64,000 bases of DNA from Gammaproteobacteria bacterium (GTDB lineage Bacteria > Pseudomonadota > Gammaproteobacteria > Pseudomonadales > Pseudohongiellaceae): contig SHZK01000004.1 in assembly GCA_009692305.1 (NCBI GenBank), positions 62,001-126,000 of the forward strand, written 5' to 3'. Shown piece by piece: positions 5,596-49,947 of this stretch. The notes below the pieces were generated by a model. That model had not been told where the DNA came from and searched no databases. It was given only the letters and a program-made list of their open reading frames with translations. Numbering within the stretch: position 1 is the first letter of the stretch; each line of letters opens with the position of its first letter. A program made the translations under genes and the position numbers.

Positions 5596-7032
5596 ATGGG
5601 AAAGCCGACCGGATTTAAGGAGTTCAAGCGCAAGACAGAACCCTATCGCAATGCGATGGAGCGCTTGCTTGATTACAAGGAAATTTACACACCGCACGAG
5701 GAAACCGCACTGTCTACACAGGGTGCTCGTTGCATGGATTGTGGCGTACCTTTCTGTCAATCCGATGAAGGTTGCCCGGTATATAACCTGATTCCAGAGT
5801 GGAATGATCTGGTCTATCACGGCCGTTGGCAGGATGCGCTGGAGCGCTTGCACAAGACTAATAATTTCCCCGAATTTACCGGACGCGTATGTCCGGCGCC
5901 CTGTGAAGGTTCTTGTGTGCTCGGCATTAATGAACCGGCAGTTACCATCAAGAACATCGAATGCGCCATCATCGACAAAGGTTTCGAGAATGGCTGGGTT
6001 GTGGCGAATCCACCTACCTACCGTTCCGGGAAAAAAGTCGCTGTGGTTGGTTCCGGTCCGGCTGGTCTCGCCGCCGCCGCGCAATTGAATCTCGCTGGCC
6101 ACGATGTCACCGTTTACGAGCGTGATGATCGCATTGGCGGCTTGCTGATGTATGGCATCCCCAACATGAAACTGGAGAAGGATGTCGTGGATCGCCGCGT
6201 AGACCTGTTGCGCGCAGAAGGTGTGAAGTTCGTCGTCAATGCCGACGTCGGCGGCAAAGGTAAAAAAGCTGTATCCGTAGAGAGCTTGCTGGATACAAAT
6301 GACGCGCTGTTGCTCGCGACTGGTGCGACCACACCAAGAGATCTCAAGATCCCCAATCGAGAAGGAAACGGCATTCATTTCGCGATGGAGTTTTTGCTAA
6401 AGAATACGGAGAGCTTGTTGGACTCGGAGTTGACCGATGGCGATTACATCAGCGCCAAAGACAAGGATGTACTTGTCATCGGTGGCGGTGATACCGGCAC
6501 TGACTGTATCGGTACGTCCCTGCGCCATGGTTGCAAGTCACTGGCCAATTTCGAGATCATGCCACGTCCTGGTGCAGAGCGCCCTGCCGACAACCCCTGG
6601 CCGCTCTGGCCGAAGATCTATCGCGTTGACTATGGTCACGAGGAAGCCGCGCAAAAATTTGGCGAAGATCCGCGCGTGTATTCGATATCCGGCAAGGAAT
6701 TTGTGCGCGACGAGAGCGGCAAGCTAATGGGTATCAATACGGTCGAAGTGGACCTTCACTTTAAAGAGATACCAGGAACAGTCAAATTCTGGAAGGCAGA
6801 TTTGATTCTGCTGTCGATAGGTTTTCTCGGACCCGAACAATATGTAAGCCGCCAGCTGGATCTGGAATTGGATTCACGCTCGAACTACAAGGCTGAGCTC
6901 GGCAAGTTTGTTACGTCGAACCCGAAAGTGTTTGCCGCTGGTGATTGCCGTCGCGGCCAATCACTGGTGGTTCGCGCCATATACGAAGGGCGACTTGTAG
7001 CTGACGCAATTAATAGCTATCTGACTGCGTAA
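5596..7032 (+). CDS. gltD: Glutamate synthase small subunit
   Basis: 478 aa; Cys motifs ([21 protein letters not shown]), FAD/NAD GxGxxG motifs; adjacent to gltB. Confidence 0.96.
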
Positions 7033-10224: not shown

Positions 10225-12093
10225 CTACTGATAGCCTCGCGCCTGGAGCTTGAACAAGGTTGCATACTGACCGTTGGCAGCGAGTAGTTCCGTATGGCTG
10301 CCTTGTTCGTGAATCTCGCCTTTTTCCAGCACGATAATGTGATCTGCCATGCGCACCGTAGAGAAGCGGTGTGAAATGATTATCGAAATCCTGTTCGTGG
10401 TGATTTCCTTGAAATGCGCGAATATTTCCGCTTCTGCCCGCGCATCGATCGCCGCTGTAGGTTCGTCGAGGATCAGTACGTCGGCTTTGGTGCGCATAAA
10501 AGCTCGCGACAAGGCGATCTTCTGCCACTGGCCACCGGAAAGTTCCTTGCCGTCCTTGAACCAGGTGCCCAACTGCGTGTTGTAACCATCAGGCAGCTCA
10601 CTGATAAAGGTGTCAGCCATGCCTTTGCTGGCAGCTTCTGCGATGCGCTTTTCTTCAGACAGGTCTGCCACATCGCCAATGCCGATGTTCTCACCCACGA
10701 TTAGCTGGTAGCGGGCGAAATCCTGGAAGATAACCCCGATCTTCTGCCGCAAGCTGTGGATATCCCACTCTCCCAGTTCCAGTCCGTCCAGAAATATTTT
10801 GCCCTCGGTAGGTGCATACAATCGAGTCAGCAATTTGATCAATGTAGTTTTGCCGCCGCCGTTTTCACCGACGATGGCAAGACTCTCACCAGGCTTGATA
10901 TGCAGGGTCACGTTCTTTAATGCGGCTGTGTTACTGCCGGGATAGTAAAAACTGACATTTTCGAAACGAATTCCATTGCGGGGATCTGGACCTGCCAATT
11001 TGACACCGGTTTGTTCCGGCACCTTGTGCTCGAGATACTCGATCAAGTTGGACAGGTACAAATTGTCTTCATACATGCCATTGACCGAAGTGAGGCTGCT
11101 CATCACCGCATTCTGACCGATACGGAACTGGGCAATGTACATGGTCATTTGTCCTATCGTGATCGCGCCGGCAATTGCTGCAAAGCCGACCCAACCATAG
11201 GCAAAGTAGAATGCAGCACTGGCGAGCAAACCAAGCACGTATCCCCAAAATCCACGACGCAGTACCAGGTCTCTGTCTTCCTTATAGATATTGGCAAATA
11301 TATCGATGTAGCGCTGCAGAAAGAGTTTGCCCAGCTGCAACAGCTTGACCTCTTTTACGCCATCTTCCCGCGTGAGCACCATTTCGAGATATATCTGCAT
11401 GCGACGTTCAGCCGACCGGCGGCGCTGAATACGAAATGCTTCACCAGAGAACTTTGCCTCCGCCAAAAATGCCGGCACACCCGCCAAACCAAGCAATAAC
11501 ACGGCGAAGGCTGAGAACTGGAATAGCCATATTCCAATTGTGACAAGAGTGATAATGTCCCGCAGCAAGTCGAACGTCTTGATTACCAGGCTTAACGGTC
11601 TGCTTGATGCCTCTCGTCGCGCCCTCACCAACTTGTCGTAATACTCTGCGTCTTCAAAATGCGCCAGTTCCAGAGTAAGGGCTTTTTCAAGAATCATGAC
11701 ATTGATCTTGTTGCCAAGTAGCACCCGCAATATGGACTGACATACCGAGTTCAGTCGTTGTGCTCCGGTCATAACCACAACCAATCCAGCCTCTACCAGC
11801 ACGAAATAAAGCACATCGCTGCACGCAGCTTCAGCGACGGCTCCGGTTGACTCGAATGCAGTCACAACTGCATCCACGAATAAACCACCGATGGAGGCGA
11901 TTGCTGCTGGTAATACGCCAGTGAGCAAGGTCGCGAGCGCCATGGTGATGGTCAGTCCCGCACTGGTGCTCCAGACGATATCGAGAGCTACGCCGCTATA
12001 TTGAAATACCGCTGCGAATTTCTTGACCGAATTGCCTGATGATGGAGAGTCCAATCTTTTCCTGTATTTATTCTGGGGTGGATGGCGCGACAA
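10225..12093 (-). CDS. ABC exporter, fused TMD-NBD (lantibiotic/peptide-exporter-like, no peptidase domain seen)
   Basis: Walker A GENGGGKTT, signature LSGGQWQK, Walker B LILDEPTAAID; AHFEDAEYYDKLVRARREAS segment of the exporter TMD. Confidence 0.85.
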   Translation of the reverse strand: MSRHPPQNKYRKRLDSPSSGNSVKKFAAVFQYSGVALDIVWSTSAGLTITMALATLLTGVLPAAIASIGGLFVDAVVTAFESTGAVAEAACSDVLYFVLVEAGLVVVMTGAQRLNSVCQSILRVLLGNKINVMILEKALTLELAHFEDAEYYDKLVRARREASSRPLSLVIKTFDLLRDIITLVTIGIWLFQFSAFAVLLLGLAGVPAFLAEAKFSGEAFRIQRRRSAERRMQIYLEMVLTREDGVKEVKLLQLGKLFLQRYIDIFANIYKEDRDLVLRRGFWGYVLGLLASAAFYFAYGWVGFAAIAGAITIGQMTMYIAQFRIGQNAVMSSLTSVNGMYEDNLYLSNLIEYLEHKVPEQTGVKLAGPDPRNGIRFENVSFYYPGSNTAALKNVTLHIKPGESLAIVGENGGGKTTLIKLLTRLYAPTEGKIFLDGLELGEWDIHSLRQKIGVIFQDFARYQLIVGENIGIGDVADLSEEKRIAEAASKGMADTFISELPDGYNTQLGTWFKDGKELSGGQWQKIALSRAFMRTKADVLILDEPTAAIDARAEAEIFAHFKEITTNRISIIISHRFSTVRMADHIIVLEKGEIHEQGSHTELLAANGQYATLFKLQARGYQ

Positions 12094-13321: not shown

Positions 13322-13619
13322 GAGAAATACAACTCCTGGCTCATTAATACACCCCGAACTGAAGGGCAGAAACTTGCACAGAATGGGTATCGACTGACAT
13401 TAAGAAATCTTCATAAGAAATTCTATTATATGAAGTTTTTAACTTTAAACAGGGGCTCTATTTATATATACGATGTTAACTTTACGCGGTATACATCACG
13501 TATTACACTAGCCCCCGAAGTTGGGGAATCCTGCAGCACCGGGCCCACGGTGTAGACCAATAACAATAGCAAATAAAAGACTCAGTACAGGGATGTCGCG
13601 CTCAGTCAGGAGTTTCAGG

Positions 13620-15981
13620 ATGAATGCTCTCATACGTGCCTGGGCGAATTTCGTCATAACGCAGCGCGCCGGGGTCCTGCTTACGGTCGCCATCTTACTG
13701 TTGATCGCTCTGCTCATCGGCCCAACCATTCCATTTGATAACAGTACCGAACGCTACTTTGTCGCCGGTGATCCGACCATAGCGGATTATGATCGCCTAC
13801 TGGAACTGTTCGGCGATAACGAATATCTGGTCATCGGCTTTGAAGCGAGCGCTAGCGCTGAGGATATTTTTGCCGAAGATACGCTGCATGACCTGGTCAA
13901 AGTTTCCGAATTTCTGGAATTCCACCCGTACATCACCCAGCTTCGCTCGCTCAGCAATTATCAATACATACATGCTGACGGCGACACTCTCAGCACTGAC
14001 TACCTGATTGAAGATGCGACCACGCTGGCCAATGACCCGGCGGCTATTGCCAGGGTCAAAGCCATCCTAAGCGATGAAGATCTCGCGATGGGCGTGCTCG
14101 TTACTGACGACTTTCGCCACACTCGCATAGCCGCGCGCGTTGAATATCACGATGGAGCGTCACCTCACAAGATTGAGTTAGTGCAAGATCTGTATCGGTT
14201 CGTTGAAGAGGAATCGATTTCTTCAGATGATTATATTTTGCACCTGTCCGGCTACCCACTAGTTAACGAGCGTTATGAAACTGTATCCGCCGAAGACCTG
14301 GATATTCTCATACCCATCATGGTGTTATTAATGATGGTGATGCTGTTCCTGAGTTTTTGCTCATTGCCTGGCACCTTGTTGCCCTAGGTTGTGATCCTCA
14401 GTGGCGTCCTGTTCGTCACTGAAATTCAGAGCTATTTGCAACTACCCCATTCCACTGTCGACTCGGCACTATTGCCAAGCCTGATTATCATCGGCATCGG
14501 CAGTGCCGTTCACGTGATTGTGGAATATTTTCACCATCGCCATCTTGGTTTATCTGGACCCGAAGCGGCACATGCGTGTGTCATTCATATGGCGTCCTTC
14601 GCTGTTTACAGCACTTACAACCTCGGCCGGATTCTATGCCCTGTCAGTCACCAAGATTCTACCTGTTCGCGACTTCGCACTGCTCGGCGCGATTGGCCCG
14701 ATGGCGCTATTCTTTTTTTCGTTGACAGTGTTGCCTGCATTACTGAGCTACGTGAAGCAATTGCCACAAGGTACGCAGGATATTCTGGATGAAGGATACA
14801 TCTCCAGACTCACCCGGCGTGTGCCCTCTTTCACTCTCAAGCACCGTAATTCGATCCTGACCTGCAGCGCGCTGTTGCTGCTATTTTCTGTTTTCTATAT
14901 TCCCAACATCAAGATCGACACGAACTATGTAACCCTGTTCAAGGCAAGCAGTCCCACCAGACAAGATATTCACTATTTTGATGCTGTCTTCAGAGGCACC
15001 ATGACGCTGGATATAATTCTTGATTCGAGCCGGATTGACGGAGTAAAAGATTCGGCGTTCCCACGCGAACTGGAGGCCATAGAACAATAGTTGGAATTAC
15101 GTGAACCGCTCGGCCAGATCAATTCACTGGCAGACTTTCTGAAGGATATTTCGCAAGCTCTCAATGCTAATGATCCGGACTTTTACCAGTTACCGGATAC
15201 AGCGGAGTTGGCTGCGCAGTTTCTGTTGCTGTATGACAGTGCTGGCCCGAATGAAGATTTGTCTGACATCAAGGATTTCGAGGATCGGTATGCGCGCCTG
15301 AATGTACCTCTTGCGAACATGGTAGCGTCGGCAACGAAAATTAAACTGGACGCGATTACTGCCTACATGAATGACAATCACGGCAGCCTGAATCCCTTGC
15401 TGACTAGCACCATGGTCTTATTTACCGTGCAGGACATTTATACGTCGCAAGGCATGTTTGCATCATTACTGGTGTCATTGGGTGTAATCAGCGGTTTCTT
15501 CATCTTGCTACTCAGATCTTTCAAGTACGGCATTCTGTGTATGATTCCCAGCGTGTTGCCGATAATATTGACAGCCAGTATTGCCAGCATGCTTGGCATT
15601 TATCTGGATTTGAGCATATTAATTTTCGGTGCCATGACAATGGGTATCGCGGTAGATGACTCAATTCATGTGATAACCCGCTATCTCGCGTCCCGTGAAG
15701 CCGGGGCAACGACACAGCAAGCCATTGCTCGAGCGATGCGCGAATCGGGTCGCGGTGTGGTATTCAGCTCGTTGGTCCTGGTATTGGGTTTCGGCGTTTT
15801 ATGCTTTGGATCGTTCACCACAATCATATATGTTGGAATGTTCGGGTCCATAATCATGGCGCTGGCTCTGCTGGGAGACCTCCTGTTCCTGCCTGCCCTG
15901 CTCTATCTGGTCGATGGCAATGGCAAAGAGTCTGATCCGGCGACCACCGACCAGATCACAACCAATACCACTTCCAGTTGA
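13620..15981 (+). pseudogene. MMPL/RND-family transporter, disrupted (two in-frame TAGs and one frameshift)
   Basis: ORF pieces 13521-14387, 14391-14792, 14518-15090 and 15091-15981 together read as one RND protein. TAG at 14385-14387 and 15088-15090; frame change near 14590-14600 (...HACVIHMA / ...SLFTALTTSAGF). Confidence 0.85.
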
Positions 15982-24885: not shown

Positions 24886-25070
24886 AAAGAGTCTCCTGGG
24901 ACATTTGCCAACCAAAAGTGTTCTTGAGCCGATATCTGTATCACCGGAGGCAACTCGTTAGATGTTGTTGTGCACGTCCGCAAGTCGGAAAGCCTTATGC
25001 ATCTCGAGTGCCACCACCTGAGCCATTGGGTTCAGGGCAACTTTGGTAGCGGTGTTCCCGGGGGCTTGCC
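24886..25070 (+). ncRNA. ssrS: 6S RNA
   Basis: Located zapA-ssrS-fau; TTGAGCCGATATCTGT, GTCCGCAAGTCGGAAAGCCTTA and TGAGCC..GGGTTCAGGGCAAC elements; closing stem CCTGGGAC / GTTCCCGGG. Boundaries approximate. Confidence 0.85.
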
Positions 25071-40727: not shown

Positions 40728-43700
40728 ATGCGCAAAACCTTCCCCGGTCATCGCAAGGCAATCACGCTTGCTGTACTGACCGCAATCTCATTGCCTGTGG
40801 CAGCACAGGATGACGCTGATATCGAAGAAGTCTTGGTTACAGGGTCCTACATCCGAGGGGCAGCTCTGAATGCACCTTCGCCGGTTCAAGTAATAGACCG
40901 GGCCAGTATCGAAGCCCAGGGCGCATCCGCGATTTGGGATGTGATCAGAAACCTGGAAGTGAATCAGGGTTCCGATACCAGTGTCCGGGGCTCGGAAGAT
41001 GCTGGACAATTGGCAGGTACAGCATCAGTAAACCTGCGAAATTTAGGCGGCAACTCTACATTAACTCTGATCAATGGCAAGCGCTTCACTCCGGTCGCGG
41101 TAGTTAGCAGCTCCGGTCAGGAAACCGTTGACTTGAACAGTATCCCGCTGGTGATGACCGAGCGGGTGGAAGTGTTGACCGATGGTGGCTCTGCACTATA
41201 CGGCTCCGACGCAGTGGCCGGTGTGGTAAACGTAATCATGCGTACCAATTTTGAAGGCTTTGAACTTTACGCGGATACGCAGGGAATTGAAGAAGCTGGA
41301 GATATTTACGAAAACACCTTCAGTGCTATTTGGGGCAGCAGTTTTAACGACGGCGCTACCAATCTGGTTATTTCCGGAGAACATTTCGACAGAGATCCGG
41401 TAAGCGTTGAATATGCCAGTTATTATGACCCGGATCGTGCAGCTTACTCTGATCGAGTCGGCTCCTTTGGAGTTTTTACGTTACTAGGCGCTGGCTTCAA
41501 CCCAGCTTACATCAATGGCCCATTGACCGCACAAAATCGCGCTGAGCGAGTTCAATTGGGCGAGTCCATATCTGGTACCAACGGCATTGTGTGGTCAGAC
41601 CCCCTTTGCACCACACAATCAGGACCGAATGGAGCTTTCTTCATTGACAATCGGTTTAGCGGTAAAGGTCGCCTGAACGGAACCTGTCAGGAAGATACGC
41701 TTGACGAGCAGTTTATTACTATTGGGCAGACCCGTTCCAGTTTGGCAGGCTCGCTTGAGCATACCTTCAATGAAAATGTGGAGTTTTATTCATTTTTCCA
41801 ATACTCCGATACCGAAACTGCCAGAGAAGGCAGCGGATACACATTCTCACGCTCACAACATGCCATTCCTTCTCCATCACTATTAGGCGCATTTTCGCAG
41901 CTGGTTGGCAATCCCGCCGCAGTAGCGCCAACTAACAATCCCCACACCATAGCAAACGGTGGTTTTGGTGTGGGATACATGACTTCTGGAAACGCAATTT
42001 CCACTGGCTGGCCCAGAACTGGTGAAGATCGTATCACTGACAATATCACCTCAGGCGCACAGCTCGGCTTACGCGGGGAATTTGATTTTGCCGATCGAAC
42101 CTTGAACTATGATCTGTCTTATTCTTACAGCGAGTCTAGCGTTGAGCAGCAATACGAGACATTGATCCGCGATAGAACTGAAATGGCTCTGATGGGATTG
42201 GGCGGGGAAAATTGCAAGCCAAACGGCACACCAAACTTAAATTTCCTTGCTGGTCCAGGTCTGGGTGCATTGAGCGGACTATTCGCTATTGTCTTCCCAG
42301 GTTATATCCTGAATACCCGTGAGTCCTGGTCGCAGGCGCTTACCAGCACCAACCAGGGCAGGGGTGGCTGTGAATTTTTCAATCCCTACCTGACTTCCCT
42401 GACTAATCCAGCGCTGGCGAATTCACCGGCATTGCTGGATTGGATGACAGACAGTGACATTCTCCGCGCCGACAAGCGCAATAATATGGGGGTTGTTGAT
42501 CTCGTAGTATCTGGCGAATTGTTTGAGATTGAAGGTGGTATGGCGCAGTTCGCTATGGGCTATCAAGGTCGCAACCAGCGTGTATCCAGCCGGGCGCCGT
42601 TAATTAATCTGCCAGGTCTGACAGTTATAACAGGTTATGGACCAGGTGGACTGGCGGCACAACCAAACCGATTCGCGAGCGAGATTACCAACAATCTGGA
42701 ATGTTCGGGCTGTATTGCGAATTTTGATGATGAACGCGATGTTGATGCGGTGTTCCTGGAATTGTCACTGCCCTTCCTGGAGAATGTAGAATCACAGGTT
42801 GCGCTGCGCTGGGAAGACTACGGTGGAAATATCGGTAGCGATATTTCTCCAAAAGTTGCGCTTAGCTGGCGGCCTTTCGACGAACTGTTGCTGAGGACGT
42901 CGTACTCTCAGTCCTTCCGGGCTCCAAATATCGGTGTAGTCAATCAGTCTTTTGAGTCTTTCGGCACCACTGTGCTCGATCCTATACGCAATCAAAGTGT
43001 GCGCGCCGGCTTGTTGCCAGCAGTCAACGCCAATGGCATTGCGAATGGTTCGTTTACTATTGGAGCGCCGAATCCGAATTTGGAAAACGAGACTGCGGAT
43101 ACTTACAATATCGGTTTCCAATGGACTCCTTCCGGGGATTTGGAAGGCTTTTCGGTAGGTGTCGATGTGTGGCGTTTCGAGGTTGAAGGCCGCGTACTGC
43201 CAAAGATACCTCGATCAGCGCTGGATCCGGAAATAGCGAATTTCAATCTTGCGGCTCAGAATCCCGCTAACTATATTTTGAATAACACTATTCCCATCGA
43301 TGCTCGCGGTCCCAATGGCCTGCCGGTTCCTTGTACTCCGGCTTCCTTTCCGGATCAAGCCTCCGCTGCGCGCCGTAATTGTGTAGTAAACCCACAGGCG
43401 TATGTGACGGATGGCGTGCAACGCAATATGACTGATACCAATGCTTCTCTTATTACGCTCGTATTGCCGGCCGTCAATGCAGGTTTATTCGAAGTGCAGG
43501 GAATCGACTTGCGTGCCGGCTACAGCTGGGAAAATAACTGGGGTAGCTTCCGCGTTGGGTTTGATTACACGCACGTGGATGAGTTTCTGGTTAGCGATGT
43601 ACCGGGTCTTGAAGCAGGTTTTCAATCAACTGGTGAGTTCGATGCTGCTGGCGTCGATGGGGAACAAAATATCGTACGCGAAGTACCGGATAACAAAGGC

Positions 43701-44048
43701 ACCCTCAGCTTTAGCTGGGCATCCGGCAACCATCGAGTATCGTTATTTAATCGTCACATTGGCTCGTATCAGGTGCTTAGCCACCGGCAATTCCTGGCTA
43801 ACCCACAAACCACGCCTCTGGACGCGGCTTACGCCAAATCCAGTGTGGCCAGTTATGATACCTGGGATGTTCAGTACAATTATAACCATGAGTGGGCAAA
43901 TTCAGCCTTGGGTACTACCGGATTCACCGTGGGTGTAATAGACGCCCTGAATGCGGATCTCCCCTTGTTTAGACGTAGTACTTTTGATGCGTCTGTGTTT
44001 GACGGTCGTGGACGACGCTTGTACGCCAGAGCGTTGTGGCAGTTCTGA
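40728..44048 (+). CDS. TonB-dependent receptor (copy 1 of tandem pair)
   Basis: IEEVLVTGSYIRGAALNAPSPVQVIDRASIEAQG plug; ERVEVLTDGGSALYGSDAVAGVVNVIM; C-terminal RALWQF. Confidence 0.95.
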   Translation: MRKTFPGHRKAITLAVLTAISLPVAAQDDADIEEVLVTGSYIRGAALNAPSPVQVIDRASIEAQGASAIWDVIRNLEVNQGSDTSVRGSEDAGQLAGTASVNLRNLGGNSTLTLINGKRFTPVAVVSSSGQETVDLNSIPLVMTERVEVLTDGGSALYGSDAVAGVVNVIMRTNFEGFELYADTQGIEEAGDIYENTFSAIWGSSFNDGATNLVISGEHFDRDPVSVEYASYYDPDRAAYSDRVGSFGVFTLLGAGFNPAYINGPLTAQNRAERVQLGESISGTNGIVWSDPLCTTQSGPNGAFFIDNRFSGKGRLNGTCQEDTLDEQFITIGQTRSSLAGSLEHTFNENVEFYSFFQYSDTETAREGSGYTFSRSQHAIPSPSLLGAFSQLVGNPAAVAPTNNPHTIANGGFGVGYMTSGNAISTGWPRTGEDRITDNITSGAQLGLRGEFDFADRTLNYDLSYSYSESSVEQQYETLIRDRTEMALMGLGGENCKPNGTPNLNFLAGPGLGALSGLFAIVFPGYILNTRESWSQALTSTNQGRGGCEFFNPYLTSLTNPALANSPALLDWMTDSDILRADKRNNMGVVDLVVSGELFEIEGGMAQFAMGYQGRNQRVSSRAPLINLPGLTVITGYGPGGLAAQPNRFASEITNNLECSGCIANFDDERDVDAVFLELSLPFLENVESQVALRWEDYGGNIGSDISPKVALSWRPFDELLLRTSYSQSFRAPNIGVVNQSFESFGTTVLDPIRNQSVRAGLLPAVNANGIANGSFTIGAPNPNLENETADTYNIGFQWTPSGDLEGFSVGVDVWRFEVEGRVLPKIPRSALDPEIANFNLAAQNPANYILNNTIPIDARGPNGLPVPCTPASFPDQASAARRNCVVNPQAYVTDGVQRNMTDTNASLITLVLPAVNAGLFEVQGIDLRAGYSWENNWGSFRVGFDYTHVDEFLVSDVPGLEAGFQSTGEFDAAGVDGEQNIVREVPDNKGTLSFSWASGNHRVSLFNRHIGSYQVLSHRQFLANPQTTPLDAAYAKSSVASYDTWDVQYNYNHEWANSALGTTGFTVGVIDALNADLPLFRRSTFDASVFDGRGRRLYARALWQF

Positions 44049-44497: not shown

Positions 44498-47400
44498 ATG
44501 CGCAGATCCTTCCCCGGTCGTCGCAAGGCAATCACGCTTGCTGTACTGGCCGGAATCTCATTTCCTGTGGTAGCACAGGATGACCCAGAAGCCGAAATCG
44601 AAGAAGTCTTGGTTACAGGGTCCTACATCCGGGGCACGCCTCTGGATGCACCTTCACCGGTTCAAGTGGTAGACCGAGCAAGTATTGAGGCCCAGGGGGC
44701 AGCAATTATTTGGGACGTCATCAAGAACCTGGAAGTGAACTCAGGTTCAGTCACTAACCCTGGATCTGGCGACAATAGCCAGGTAGAAGGCACGGCTAAC
44801 GTCAACCTTCGTAACCTGGGTGAAAACTCAACTCTGACTTTGATCAATGGCAAGCGCCAGGTCGGCGCAGCTGCCAATACCCGCAGTGGTGGCGAATTCG
44901 TAGACTTGAACGCCATACCGTTGGTTATGACTGAGCGCGTTGAAGTACTCACCGACGGCGGTTCAGCACTGTATGGTGCGGACGCGGTAGCGGGTGTGGT
45001 CAACATCATCATGCGTACTGACTTCGAAGGTCTGGAAGTGTACGGTGACCTGCAAGGTGTCGAAGCAGCCGGTAGTCAATTTGACGCCACGGTCAGCGCC
45101 ATCTGGGGCTGGGGTAGCGACGATGGCAATACTCACCTGGTATTGTCCGCCGAGCGCTTCGAGCGCGACCCGGTATCGGTGCAAGACGGCAACTTCTTCG
45201 ATGAGAATTCCCAGTTTCTGGGCACCGTCGGTACTGCCGGAAGCTTGGTCTCCAGCACAGCCTTGGGTGCGCGGGTGAGTCCCGGTTGGCTTAACAACGA
45301 AGTCAGAGATTGGAACGTTGCCAATGGTGGCCTAGCCACAGCGGTCTATACCGATCCTGGCTGTTATACGTTGAAGTCTCAAGACGGTTCGCCTTTAATA
45401 ATCGGCGCCTTGCGTGAAATACGTGGCGAGCGTGGCGGGACCTGTCGCGAAGACGTCTCCGAGTGGAACTATATTTCCCAGCAAGCCGCTCGTGACAGCT
45501 TTGCGGGTGCTTTTAATCACACCTTCGGCAACGGCACTGAGTTCTATTCATTTGCCCAGTATTCGGATTCGAACACTGTGCGGGCCGACGACGGCTACAA
45601 TCAATCCCGTGGACCAACCGTATTCCTGGCCGCGCCAGGTAGCACCGCAGGCAATCCCGCGTATGGCGGTTACGGCATTGGGATGTCAGCCGAGCTTGGT
45701 TATTTTGCACCCAGCGTAGGCCTGACCCGTCCAACCGCAGCCACCATTACCAATTCACCGCTGTCTGCTGCCAATGGTGGACCGAACGTGACCTTGTGGC
45801 AGGGTCTGCGTTATGGCCTGCCGCGACAAGGGGCCGACGATAACACCACCTGGACCAATACTTCTGGTATACAAGCCGGCTTACGCGGCGAATTCGAAGT
45901 GGCGGATCGGGTGCTGAACTACGACGTGAGCTACGCCTGGAGTGGATCATCACTGGAACAGACTTATCGCACCTTTGACCGCGATCGTTCCGAGCTGGCC
46001 GCGAATGGTTTGGGCGGACCAAACTGCAAACCTAATGGACGACCAGATTTCAATTTCCAGGGTGCGACAGTTCTGGGTAGCAATGCCTTGAATATGTGGA
46101 ATCCGAAATTGTACGGGCTAGGGTTGACCCAGACCTTCTTCCCGGGCTTCGTGTTCACCACCCGTGAAAACATGTCCTATGGCCTCACCAGTAACAACCA
46201 GGGCCAGGGCGGTTGTCAGTTCTACAATCCGTTCCTCAGTGCCTTGACCAATCCGGCGCTGAGGAATAGCGAAGAGTTGATGGAATGGATTAACGTCAAG
46301 ACCAACGTGCGCGACAAGCGCAATAAGATGGCGGTATTCGATGCTGTCGTCTCCGGTGAACTGTTCGAGATGCGCGGTGGTACCGCACAATTCGCAGCCG
46401 GTGGCCAGTATCGTTCATCCAATAACCACTCGCGCGCTTCCCTGCTTAACCTGCCTGGCTTGACCAATCGCATCCTCGGTTACGATGCTGCTGGCAAACC
46501 GAATAACTTCCATTACGTCAGTAATAACTTTGACTGTTCACTGTGTGCGTATAACTACGACCACGAACGTAATGTTAGCGCGGTGTTTATGGAATTGTCC
46601 CTGCCGTTCATTGAGAACGTAGAGACCCAGATTGCACTGCGTTACGAAGACTACGGTGGCCAAATCGGCAGCGAACTATCACCCAAGTTGGCGGTGAGCT
46701 GGCGGCCTATTGATACGTTGTTGGTGCGCGGTTCCTTCTCACAATCTTTCCGTGCCCCTAACGTCACCATCATTGAGACAGGTCTGGAATCATCCGGTGC
46801 AACTTTCCGCGATCCGATTCGTAACCAGTCAGTGCGTGCCGGTATTCTGCCAGCTACCAACGAGAATGCGATTCCAGGCTTTACCTATACCCTGGGCGTT
46901 CCAGCGCCGGATGTGGGTAACGAGTATGCTGACACCTTCAGTACCGGTTTCCTGTGGACCCCTGCTGGTAAACTCGACGGCCTGTCGGTCGGTGCCGATT
47001 TCTGGCGCTTCGAAGTCAGCGACCGCGTGCTGCCACAACCGCCAATCTCTGCATTACAACCTGAGATTACAGCCTTTGAAGCGGCCGCCAAGAATCCAGC
47101 GAATTATGTCCTGAATGACACTATTCCTGCCGATTCTCCAACTCCCTACGCAGCTTGCAATCCAGCCGCTCTGACGGCCCAGTTTGGTAACTCTGCTAAG
47201 GAGCGTATCAACTGCGTGGTTGACCCGCGCAGCTACGTGGTGCCTGGTATTTCGCGCGCCTTCGGTGTGACTACTGCTTCCTTGATCACCCTGACTTTGA
47301 GCGCGGTCAACGCTGGCACCATCACATCCGACGGTGTGGACTTGACTACTGGTTATCGCTGGAGCAACGACTGGGGTAGCTGGGGCGTGGGTCTCGATTA

Positions 47401-47884
47401 CACCTACGTGCGTCAGTACATACTGGCCGACGTTCCTGGTTTCGAACGGGGTCTGCTGGAACTTGGTGTATTTGATGCCGCAGGTACAACCGGTGACGGC
47501 AACCTGGTGCGTTCACTGCCTGACAACAAGGGTCACATCACTTTCAACTGGCAGCGCGATCAGCAGGGTGTAACGCTGGTTAATCGTCATATCGGTTCCT
47601 ATCGGGATCTGGCATATGACGCTACGTACCAGAATGGCAGTGACTTTACCCGCTCATTGTTGACGAAAAACGTTGCGAGCTACGATACCTGGGATATACA
47701 GTATCGCTACAGCTACGAATGGGCCAACAACAATCTGGGTTCAACTATCTTCACTGCGGGCTTGTTGGATGCCTTCAATGAAGAACTGCCTTATCGTGAA
47801 AGCAGCGGCCTGCACTACGACGCCGGCGTGTTCGACGGTCGTGGACGACGTTTCTACCTTCGTGCCCTGTGGCAATTCCGCTAG
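44498..47884 (+). CDS. TonB-dependent receptor (copy 2 of tandem pair)
   Basis: EIEEVLVTGSYIRGTPLDAPSPVQVVDRASIEAQGAAIIWDVIKNLEVNSGS; paralog of 40728-44048. Confidence 0.95.
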   Translation: MRRSFPGRRKAITLAVLAGISFPVVAQDDPEAEIEEVLVTGSYIRGTPLDAPSPVQVVDRASIEAQGAAIIWDVIKNLEVNSGSVTNPGSGDNSQVEGTANVNLRNLGENSTLTLINGKRQVGAAANTRSGGEFVDLNAIPLVMTERVEVLTDGGSALYGADAVAGVVNIIMRTDFEGLEVYGDLQGVEAAGSQFDATVSAIWGWGSDDGNTHLVLSAERFERDPVSVQDGNFFDENSQFLGTVGTAGSLVSSTALGARVSPGWLNNEVRDWNVANGGLATAVYTDPGCYTLKSQDGSPLIIGALREIRGERGGTCREDVSEWNYISQQAARDSFAGAFNHTFGNGTEFYSFAQYSDSNTVRADDGYNQSRGPTVFLAAPGSTAGNPAYGGYGIGMSAELGYFAPSVGLTRPTAATITNSPLSAANGGPNVTLWQGLRYGLPRQGADDNTTWTNTSGIQAGLRGEFEVADRVLNYDVSYAWSGSSLEQTYRTFDRDRSELAANGLGGPNCKPNGRPDFNFQGATVLGSNALNMWNPKLYGLGLTQTFFPGFVFTTRENMSYGLTSNNQGQGGCQFYNPFLSALTNPALRNSEELMEWINVKTNVRDKRNKMAVFDAVVSGELFEMRGGTAQFAAGGQYRSSNNHSRASLLNLPGLTNRILGYDAAGKPNNFHYVSNNFDCSLCAYNYDHERNVSAVFMELSLPFIENVETQIALRYEDYGGQIGSELSPKLAVSWRPIDTLLVRGSFSQSFRAPNVTIIETGLESSGATFRDPIRNQSVRAGILPATNENAIPGFTYTLGVPAPDVGNEYADTFSTGFLWTPAGKLDGLSVGADFWRFEVSDRVLPQPPISALQPEITAFEAAAKNPANYVLNDTIPADSPTPYAACNPAALTAQFGNSAKERINCVVDPRSYVVPGISRAFGVTTASLITLTLSAVNAGTITSDGVDLTTGYRWSNDWGSWGVGLDYTYVRQYILADVPGFERGLLELGVFDAAGTTGDGNLVRSLPDNKGHITFNWQRDQQGVTLVNRHIGSYRDLAYDATYQNGSDFTRSLLTKNVASYDTWDIQYRYSYEWANNNLGSTIFTAGLLDAFNEELPYRESSGLHYDAGVFDGRGRRFYLRALWQFR

Positions 47885-47913
47885 CACGCGCTTGTTAACA
47901 AGTGTTGGCAAGG

Positions 47914-47947
47914 AAAACGGCGATGAGCGATCATCGCCGTTTTTTTA
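47914..47947 (+). terminator. Rho-independent terminator of TonB receptor 2
   Basis: AACGGCGATGA-gcga-TCATCGCCGTTTTTTTA, nearly identical to the 44073 terminator. Confidence 0.9.
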
Positions 47948-48238
47948 TGTGAGCCAGAAGTAAAGAATCACTGTCAGGGTTAGCACATAGAACAGGGGAA
48001 ACCCGTGCAGGAATTTCGTATCCCTGCTCCTGTCGAATATTTTACCGAACTCATCCATGTTTTTTGTAAGTAGCATCTCCGGGTTTCTATACACCCAATA
48101 CAATACGGATGCCGATGAAATCCCCGTCATTGCCCCAGCGAAATCCGGGTGAATGAAAGTTCGACCGATTGCCAGTATGACTGCGGCAAGCACCATCCCC
48201 AGCACAATATTCTTTGCAGTCTTCTGTGAAATTTGCAT
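47945..48238 (-). CDS. Small membrane protein downstream of a double-glycine peptide; candidate immunity/accessory protein
   Basis: About 97-100 aa with three hydrophobic stretches; starts about 10-20 bp after 48256-48474 on the same strand. Confidence 0.5.
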   Translation of the reverse strand: MQISQKTAKNIVLGMVLAAVILAIGRTFIHPDFAGAMTGISSASVLYWVYRNPEMLLTKNMDEFGKIFDRSRDTKFLHGFPLFYVLTLTVILYFWLT

Positions 48239-48255
48239 ACGCTGCATTTTTCCTT

Positions 48256-48474
48256 TTAGGAATATTCATCCAGTGCCCAGCTGGTCACACCAAAACTGAT
48301 CCCGAATACGCCCCCTAGTACCGCGCCTTGAGCACCAAATCGCGCGGCACCCATTAACGTGCACTCATATGCTGCGCCAAAGATAGTCCCTAGCGCACTG
48401 CCCTCGCCCATGTATTCAGTCATCGCTGAACCGCCGCCGACCCGATCAACTTCTATTGCTGTAAGTTCTCTCAT
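48256..48474 (-). CDS. Double-glycine-leader peptide precursor, candidate class II microcin
   Basis: MRELTAIEVDRVGGG leader + SAMTEYMGEGSALGTIFGAAYECTLMGAARFGAQGAVLGGVFGISFGVTSWALDEYS core; AGGAG upstream of ATG. Confidence 0.7.
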   Translation of the reverse strand: MRELTAIEVDRVGGGSAMTEYMGEGSALGTIFGAAYECTLMGAARFGAQGAVLGGVFGISFGVTSWALDEYS

Positions 48475-48717
48475 CGTCTGTCTCCTGTATGGTCATTGCA
48501 GATGTTGATACCAGTTGTTGATAGAACAAGTCCGCTGCCTATTGCGGACTAACTATCAGCCTAGACTGCGATGTGGGAATTGGCGAATTTACGCTGAATT
48601 TTGTAGAACAGTATCGAAGTGCATGCTGTTTGCGCTAGTTTACTTTTGGTTTACAGGGCCGCGAAAGCAGCCCTTGCAGGGAAATTGCGGACCACCGGGA
48701 AGTCGTTCAGCAGAATT

Positions 48718-49947
48718 CTAACAATTCCGAATAAAATCAAAATCCAGTGGCTGTTGCAGATCAATCCTGTAGTGCGTGGATGGCATTGGATATTTCAGGC
48801 CCGTGGCACAATTGAACAGCATCACCTGTTCATCTGACTTGATGCGACCACTGCGCAATTCCTGTTTCAGCGCGGCCAGTGTTGCTGCACCTTCCGGACA
48901 CAGCAAGATGCCTTCCTTGCGTGCACATTCCTGATGCGCCTGCTGTATGTCCGCATCACTCACGGCCACTGCGAAGCCGTTACTCGCTCGCACCGCATCA
49001 AGGATCAGGAAATCACCGACTGCCGCCGGCACCCGAATCCCGGATGCTATGGTGCTGGCATTTTGCCAGGGCTCGGCATGACGCGCTCCAGCTTCGAAGG
49101 CTTTTACAATCGGTGCACAGCCACTAGCCTGCACCGCCACCATGCGCGGCCGTTTCGCACCGATCCAGCCAATCGCCTCCAACTCAGCAAATGCTTTCCA
49201 CATGCCAATCAGGCCGGTACCGCCACCGGTAGGATAGAGAATAACGTCGGGCAGCTGCCAGTTCAGCTGCTCGGCCAGCTCCAGACCCATCGTCTTCTTG
49301 CCTTCGATACGGTACGGCTCCTTCAAGGTCGATGTATCAAACCACTGCATTATTTCCTTGCCTGCCCCAACGATGCGACCACAATCATTAATGTAGCCGT
49401 TGGCCAGAAAAGTCTTCGCGCCTTGAAAGGCTATCTCTTCTATATTTACCCGCGGCGTGTCTTCCGGACAGAATACAAACGTTTCAATGTCGGCCGCTGA
49501 ACAATACGCAGCCAGTGCTGCTCCGGCATTGCCATTGGTTGGCATTGCCATACGCTTTACTCCCAATTCCTTCGCCATCGCCACTGCCAGCGCCAGACCA
49601 CGGGCCTTGAACGACCCGGTTGGTAATCTGCCCTCATCCTTAATCAGTATTTCCCCAGATCCATATGCTTGCTGTAATTTTGTTGCTGGCAGAATTGGCG
49701 TCATGACTTCACCGAGCCGCACCACGTTCGCGGAGTGACGCACTGGCAGGAATTCCCGATAACGCCAGAACTCCGGCAAGCGTTCCTTCAAATCAGATTT
49801 GGATACGGCTTTCCCCAGCGCAGCGAGGTCGTATTTGACGAGCAGCGGTTTGCCGGCTTCCGACAGACCATGTAATTGCTGTGCAGGATAGTGCTTGCCG
49901 GTATAGCTGCACTCGAGGTGGGTTACGAAATTTGGATATTCTTTCAT
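48718..49947 (-). CDS. thrC: Threonine synthase-like PLP enzyme
   Basis: LIKDEGRLPTGSFKARGLALAV PLP-Lys motif; YPTGGGTGLIGMWKAF. Confidence 0.85.
   Translation of the reverse strand: MKEYPNFVTHLECSYTGKHYPAQQLHGLSEAGKPLLVKYDLAALGKAVSKSDLKERLPEFWRYREFLPVRHSANVVRLGEVMTPILPATKLQQAYGSGEILIKDEGRLPTGSFKARGLALAVAMAKELGVKRMAMPTNGNAGAALAAYCSAADIETFVFCPEDTPRVNIEEIAFQGAKTFLANGYINDCGRIVGAGKEIMQWFDTSTLKEPYRIEGKKTMGLELAEQLNWQLPDVILYPTGGGTGLIGMWKAFAELEAIGWIGAKRPRMVAVQASGCAPIVKAFEAGARHAEPWQNASTIASGIRVPAAVGDFLILDAVRASNGFAVAVSDADIQQAHQECARKEGILLCPEGAATLAALKQELRSGRIKSDEQVMLFNCATGLKYPMPSTHYRIDLQQPLDFDFIRNC

What the first reader, a model, noticed from the sequence alone, without database searches (positions are those of the whole stretch)
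48256..48474. Candidate class II microcin with an MccV-type double-glycine leader
Seen: 72-aa minus-strand ORF with AGGAG RBS, MRELTAIEVDRVGGG | SAMTEYMGEGSALGTIFGAAYECTLMGAARFGAQGAVLGGVFGISFGVTSWALDEYS. Known: the colicin V (MccV) leader is MRTLTLNELDSVSGG, also 15 aa ending in GG, and class II microcin cores are Gly/Ala-rich and small. Inference: this is an unannotated secreted antibacterial or signalling peptide processed by a C39-peptidase ABC transporter. No such transporter lies in this window, so export would depend on one elsewhere in the genome.
Basis: partly seen in the sequence, partly recalled or inferred. Interest (0 to 1): 0.8.

Follow-up and report, generated by a model that had tools for sequence, protein, structure and literature searches.

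The report
Orphaned microcin gene pair, exporter lost
This is a real gene for a small secreted-toxin-like peptide (a microcin) with its likely self-protection gene beside it, conserved across a group of uncultured gammaproteobacteria, but this particular genome has lost the machine needed to cut and export the peptide, so it is probably a stranded relic rather than a working weapon.

Summary
The ORF is real. 48256-48474(-) encodes a 72-aa precursor with a 15-aa double-glycine leader and an RBS. It encodes a 100-aa helical membrane protein, the likely immunity partner, and a strong hairpin follows it.

A profile finds this peptide in 22 of 84 genomes of the genus. The partner is adjacent in 21 of them, and a contig-end case adds one more genome. 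Most relatives match Pfam Bacteriocin_IIc and MccV; the window copy matches neither.

The window genome (94% complete) has no C39 peptidase. Relatives keep a C39 exporter between gcvTHP and a Xaa-Pro-peptidase-like gene ('pepQ'). The window genome has both flanks on one contig, with only a 99-aa, stop-interrupted fragment between them, so the exporter was deleted. Four other carriers show similar losses. The window core has also drifted more than its host distance predicts. I therefore read it as an orphaned class II microcin cassette, not an active secreted bacteriocin.

In relatives, the exporter operon also encodes a lipid-A-type acyltransferase (24 of 24 loci) and an acyl carrier protein (21 of 24), raising the untested possibility of fatty-acylated microcins.

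The parts
48256..48474 (-). 72-aa class II microcin-like precursor gene (stop included)
   Evidence: homologues in 21 other genomes of the genus
48430..48474 (-). 15-aa double-glycine leader MRELTAIEVDRVGGG; family consensus MRELTxxEIEQVSGG
   Evidence: Alignment A4
48259..48429 (-). 57-aa Gly/Ala-rich core; no Lys, net charge -4, one Cys not shared by most relatives
   Evidence: predicted helices 17-37 and 40-71, mean pLDDT 77.6
48482..48486 (-). AGGAG ribosome-binding site of the peptide gene
   Evidence: Read directly from the sequence
47945..48247 (-). 100-aa helical membrane protein, candidate immunity protein; start may be the ATG at 48247 or at 48238
   Evidence: AlphaFold2 mean pLDDT 89.6 with helices 8-32, 36-54 and 84-99; adjacent to the peptide gene in 21 of 22 peptide-bearing genomes
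47914..47943 (-). 13-bp hairpin ending in T residues directly after the immunity gene; probable end of the transcription unit, and shared with the convergent TonB-receptor gene
   Evidence: Fold of 47905-47950: -19.3 kcal/mol, z = -5.2; the consensus scanner did not list it
48718..49947 (-). Threonine synthase gene (NF006050) upstream; marks the shared genomic location of the cassette in seven relatives but is not part of it

Best explanation
The locus is a two-gene class II microcin cassette (precursor plus putative membrane immunity protein) inherited from an ancestor whose C39-peptidase ABC exporter and HlyD-type membrane fusion protein sat elsewhere in the chromosome, between gcvTHP and pepQ. 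In carriers that keep the exporter, the peptidase would cut after the double glycine and export the core, and the neighbouring membrane protein would protect the producer. In the window's lineage the exporter operon was deleted fairly recently. The peptide can therefore probably no longer be processed or exported and is drifting; the immunity gene is probably still useful, or simply not yet lost, as protection against exporter-bearing kin. Shown: the conserved pair, the exporter operon in relatives, its absence and the deletion scar here. Inferred: antibacterial activity, the immunity role, substrate-exporter pairing, and loss of secretion.
For: Conserved pair: the peptide profile hits 22 of 84 genomes and the partner profile 22 of 84; 21 genomes share both on the same strand and adjacent, and in a 22nd partner genome (G100) the peptide is cut by the contig end. 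Family-level matches to Bacteriocin_IIc and MccV. C39 is found in 16 of 23 carriers against 22 of 61 non-carriers, Fisher p = 0.007 (phylogeny not corrected for). All six relatives first opened have the exporter at the same gcvP-pepQ site, and further carriers show it there too. The window genome has no C39 peptidase; gcvT-gcvH-gcvP and pepQ-kdtA sit on one 330-kb contig with only residues 222-320 of the p325 gene, broken by one stop, between them. That remnant is still 66% identical to an intact copy, against 60% for intact copies at similar host distance, so the loss looks recent. At equal host distance (gcvP 74-77%) the window peptide is 38-46% identical to relatives, other pairs 47-56%, while its immunity protein (44-49% to the main clade) is not accelerated.
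Against: The peptide ORF is intact, with start, RBS and double glycine retained, which an old pseudogene would not be. About 6% of the genome is missing and could hold another exporter. The codon branch test is only suggestive: peptide omega 0.149 on the window branch against 0.087 elsewhere (2dlnL 6.15), immunity 0.100 against 0.104, but the window branch length was at its upper bound because synonymous change is saturated. No activity, expression or processing was tested. The carriers are mostly metagenome-assembled genomes.
Confidence: 0.7

Rival explanations
1. The microcin is still secreted, by a C39 exporter in the unassembled part of the genome or by another ABC/type I exporter together with a separate protease.
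For: The assembly is 94% complete in 60 contigs. Some relatives have several C39 matches; G103 and G104 have six each. The genome keeps six other ABC exporters, one resembling a PrtD-type secretion ATPase by eye.
Against: The ancestral exporter site is visibly deleted. None of the six ABC proteins carries an N-terminal peptidase domain. A second exporter lying exactly in the missing part is improbable.
Confidence: 0.15
2. The pair does something other than kill competitors: for example the peptide acts as a signal or in self-lysis, as the microcin-like Nap peptides of Neisseria do, or acts inside the cell as a membrane peptide restrained by its partner.
For: Microcin-like double-glycine peptides without detectable antibacterial activity are documented (PMC11798529). 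Cores here are nearly Lys-free and mostly anionic. The pair persists in several genomes without an exporter.
Against: G092 keeps an intact peptide while its partner gene is broken and its exporter is gone, so an unexported peptide does not seem to need the partner. Carriage is associated with C39 presence.
Confidence: 0.12
3. The ORF is a chance open frame.
For: The window copy alone matches no family model.
Against: Full-length homologues with invariant leader and glycine positions, adjacent partner gene, RBS, low dN/dS in relatives.
Confidence: 0.01

Closest known systems
Class II microcins of the MccV (colicin V) type
   Same: Small precursor with a 15-aa double-glycine leader starting MR-L; Gly/Ala-rich core; small membrane immunity candidate beside it; in relatives a C39 ABC exporter plus HlyD protein in the genome.
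   Different: The window copy gives no match to the MccV model; the immunity protein matches no family; the exporter is remote from the cassette, carries acyltransferase and ACP genes, and is missing here.
Bacteriocin_IIc (PF10439) double-glycine bacteriocins
   Same: 14 of 22 family members match, best E 1.1e-5.
   Different: The window copy does not match; the organism is gammaproteobacterial and the partner is unrelated to any family in Pfam.
Microcin hits without a PCAT in E. coli assemblies (PMC9746304)
   Same: About 18% of microcin hits there had no PCAT in the same assembly, as here.
   Different: Here the loss is demonstrated at the ancestral locus on one contig, with a gene remnant left behind.
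Neisseria autolysis peptides, nap island (PMC11798529)
   Same: Microcin-like double-glycine peptides, C39 peptidase, putative immunity protein.
   Different: There the peptidase is part of a compact island with a FapF-type channel; no ACP or acyltransferase is mentioned in the passages read.

Membership tests
[quoted passage not shown]
Class II microcin | Adjacent small immunity protein | tested here: inconclusive
   A conserved adjacent membrane protein is present, but its protective function is not tested
Class II microcin | C39-peptidase ABC transporter (PCAT) in the same genome | tested here: not met
   None in the window genome, site deleted; present in 16 of 23 carriers. The window copy is therefore filed only as an orphaned relative of such a system
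Class II microcin | Membrane fusion protein paired with the transporter | tested here: not met
   The orthologous MFP is absent from the window genome; unrelated HlyD proteins and TolC were not searched for
Class II microcin | Antibacterial activity of the mature core | not testable with these tools
   No experiment possible
Pfam Bacteriocin_IIc PF10439 | HMM match | tested here: inconclusive
   14 of 22 family members match at E <= 0.1, best 1.1e-5; window copy no match
Pfam MccV PF17508 | HMM match | tested here: inconclusive
   14 of 22 family members match at E <= 0.1, best 1.3e-4; window copy no match

The most novel reading that the evidence does not exclude
The exporter operon that served this cassette defines a family-specific microcin system in which a dedicated acyl carrier protein and a lipid-A-acyltransferase-like enzyme attach a fatty acyl group to the peptide before or during C39 export. 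That would be a lipidated class II microcin, of which the window carries a stranded precursor.
Probability: 0.25. Interest if true: 0.75.

Novelty: new variant of a known kind. Interest (0 to 1): 0.5.

Why it matters
The ten validated class II microcins come mainly from E. coli (PMC9746304); this documents a conserved microcin-like family with an immunity partner in uncultured gammaproteobacteria that the family libraries searched here do not name. It gives a clear case of exporter loss with the cassette left behind, repeated in several relatives, which bears on how bacteriocin systems decay and on when precursor genes should not be counted as active bacteriocins. The ACP plus acyltransferase genes conserved in the exporter operon suggest an unrecognised modification that can be tested directly in the relatives.

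Tried and rejected
Pfam and NCBIfam on the window peptide and partner: no usable match. Partner on plasmids: no match. Fold search of the partner model in the PDB: nothing below E = 1. Partner profile in 392 genomes of the order: only the same genus. Small ORFs near the exporter in six relatives: none had a clear MREL-type GG leader, so the exporter is remote from its presumed substrate. I first read G100's short peptide hit as a pseudogene; it is cut by the contig end. Codon branch test: saturated, treated as suggestive only. The profile scan for organism names failed once because the alignment was too diverse and worked with a narrower one. Laying out the whole genome was not available.

Full report
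The observation. The 72-aa ORF is present at 48256-48474 on the minus strand, with AGGAG seven bases before the ATG and the leader MRELTAIEVDRVGGG. Neither Pfam nor NCBIfam matches it. Directly after that gene lies a 13-bp hairpin (fold -19.3 kcal/mol, z = -5.2). The pair therefore looks like a short transcription unit between the threonine synthase gene and a convergent TonB-receptor gene.

Conservation. A search of 58 relatives with each protein found both in the same genus, always adjacent and on the same strand in the clear cases; G016 has two tandem copies. A profile of the peptide hits 22 of the 84 genomes held for the genus at E <= 1e-17, and a profile of the partner hits 22. 21 genomes have both. 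G101 has a shortened peptide and no partner. G100 has the partner, with its peptide cut by the contig end. In the alignment of 22 peptides the leader RELT, E8 and several glycines are invariant. Close pairs of relatives show dN/dS of about 0.15-0.18 for the peptide and 0.13-0.15 for the partner. This is not a chance ORF.

Class. Scanned one by one, 14 of 22 family members match Pfam Bacteriocin_IIc (best E 1.1e-5) and 14 match MccV (best 1.3e-4); nine match the NCBIfam E492 microcin model weakly. The window copy itself is the outlier and matches none. The partner protein is predicted with good confidence as a helical protein with three long helices (pLDDT 89.6). It has no fold match below E = 1 in the PDB, no family, no plasmid match, and was not found outside the genus in 392 genomes of the order. 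Its position, size and co-inheritance make it the likely immunity protein; that is inference. Named public records for relatives are metagenome-assembled Gammaproteobacteria / Pseudomonadales, two of them labelled SAR86 cluster; I do not name the genus.

The exporter. The window genome (94.1% complete, 60 contigs) has no C39 peptidase, while the same search finds it in 38 of 84 genomes of the genus. Of 23 carriers 16 have C39, against 22 of 61 non-carriers (Fisher p = 0.007, not corrected for relatedness). In the six carriers first opened, the C39 ABC gene sits between gcvT-gcvH-gcvP and pepQ-kdtA (names here are by resemblance), in the order: acyltransferase, ACP, HlyD protein, C39 ABC, a 226-aa protein, a 325-aa protein. 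The peptidase of L053 has the Cys, His and Asp expected for activity, with the His-Asp spacing of 16 reported for CvaB (sequence; CvaB residues).

The scar. A composite search and then a local comparison show that the window genome keeps gcvTHP and pepQ-kdtA on one contig (G000:C6). Between them is only residues 222-320 of the 325-aa protein, interrupted by one stop codon. No Ns occur in the stretch. The fragment is 66% identical to an intact copy, where intact copies at similar host distance are 60% identical, so it has hardly decayed and the deletion is probably recent. Four more carriers without C39 show comparable losses with other leftovers: G022, G092, G097 and G101. G069 and G096 cannot be judged there because of a contig end and of rearranged, transposase-bearing sequence. 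Exporter loss with cassette persistence is therefore recurrent. G092 has also lost its partner gene and G101 has a damaged peptide and no partner. G034, which keeps the exporter, has a stop codon in its partner gene; in a metagenome assembly this may be an error.

Drift. At equal host distance (gcvP identity 74-77%), other pairs of genomes share 47-56% of the peptide, whereas the window peptide shares 38-46% with any relative. Its partner shares 44-49% with the main clade, no less than expected. A codon branch test points the same way for the peptide (2dlnL 6.15) and not for the partner (0.13), but the window branch is saturated and at its bound, so I count it as a hint only.

Interpretation. 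Relatives have the precursor, immunity candidate, C39 exporter and membrane fusion protein of a class II microcin system. The window has the precursor and the putative immunity gene, and has lost the processing and export machinery. Six other ABC exporters exist, none with an N-terminal peptidase; one is in the window at 10225-12093. The most likely state is an orphaned, recently silenced microcin whose immunity gene may still protect against kin. E. coli surveys also find microcin genes without a PCAT in the assembly in about 18% of hits (PMC9746304), so the orphan state is not unheard of; what is added here is a visible deletion at the ancestral site.

A broader lead. In 24 exporter loci of the genus the operon carries a protein of the lipid A acyltransferase family (PF03279, above cut-off in both copies scanned), and in 21 of them an ACP (PF00550, above cut-off in both scanned, invariant LDSL serine) next to the HlyD and C39 genes. 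Five genomes of a sister genus have the same four genes together. Ten of the 24 loci are in genomes without this cassette, so the operon presumably also serves other double-glycine peptides. Searches of the open literature with microcin, acyl carrier protein, acyltransferase and C39 returned nothing that looked relevant from titles and abstracts. A fatty-acylated microcin is therefore possible but untested. The near absence of Lys in the cores would leave the new N-terminus or hydroxyl groups as sites. From memory, the H-x4-E motif of LpxL enzymes appears altered here (FH-x-GDF), so activity cannot be assumed.

Noticed in passing
L053-L058, L125-L142; L146-L150 in a sister genus: Exporter operon with lipid-A-type acyltransferase and ACP genes beside HlyD and C39 ABC genes, conserved across the family; possible lipid modification of exported peptides.
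   Followed up: partly
L052:5311-5592 and 6200-6487; L084:1501-1782; L085:267-548: A second family of longer double-glycine peptides (MRELTYEEMEQVDGG...) in other genomes of the genus, two copies in G020; genomes G020, G029 and G073 have no copy of this immunity family.
   Followed up: no
window 13521-15981 (+): An MMPL/RND-type transporter gene appears split by a frameshift and an in-frame stop into three ORFs; the first and last match PF03176. Either a pseudogene or assembly errors.
   Followed up: partly
window 24890-25068 (+): 6S RNA (RF00013, 71.5 bits).
   Followed up: no
window 40728-44048 and 44498-47884 (+): Two tandem large TonB-dependent-receptor-like genes with very similar N-terminal regions just beyond the cassette.
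   Followed up: no
L053:10898-11575 and equivalents: The 226-aa protein conserved after the C39 gene looks by eye like a REP-associated transposase that has lost its HxH motif; no Pfam match.
   Followed up: no
L062:10773-11069 and L100:576-872: The remnants of the 325-aa gene in G000 and G097 begin at nearly the same residue (222 and 224) although the rest of the site differs; a shared breakpoint or a deletion hot spot.
   Followed up: no
L046:8894-9112 and L073:1501-1716: Two exporter-bearing relatives (G011, G088) have lost the double glycine at the leader end (VSRAG, VRGRG).
   Followed up: no
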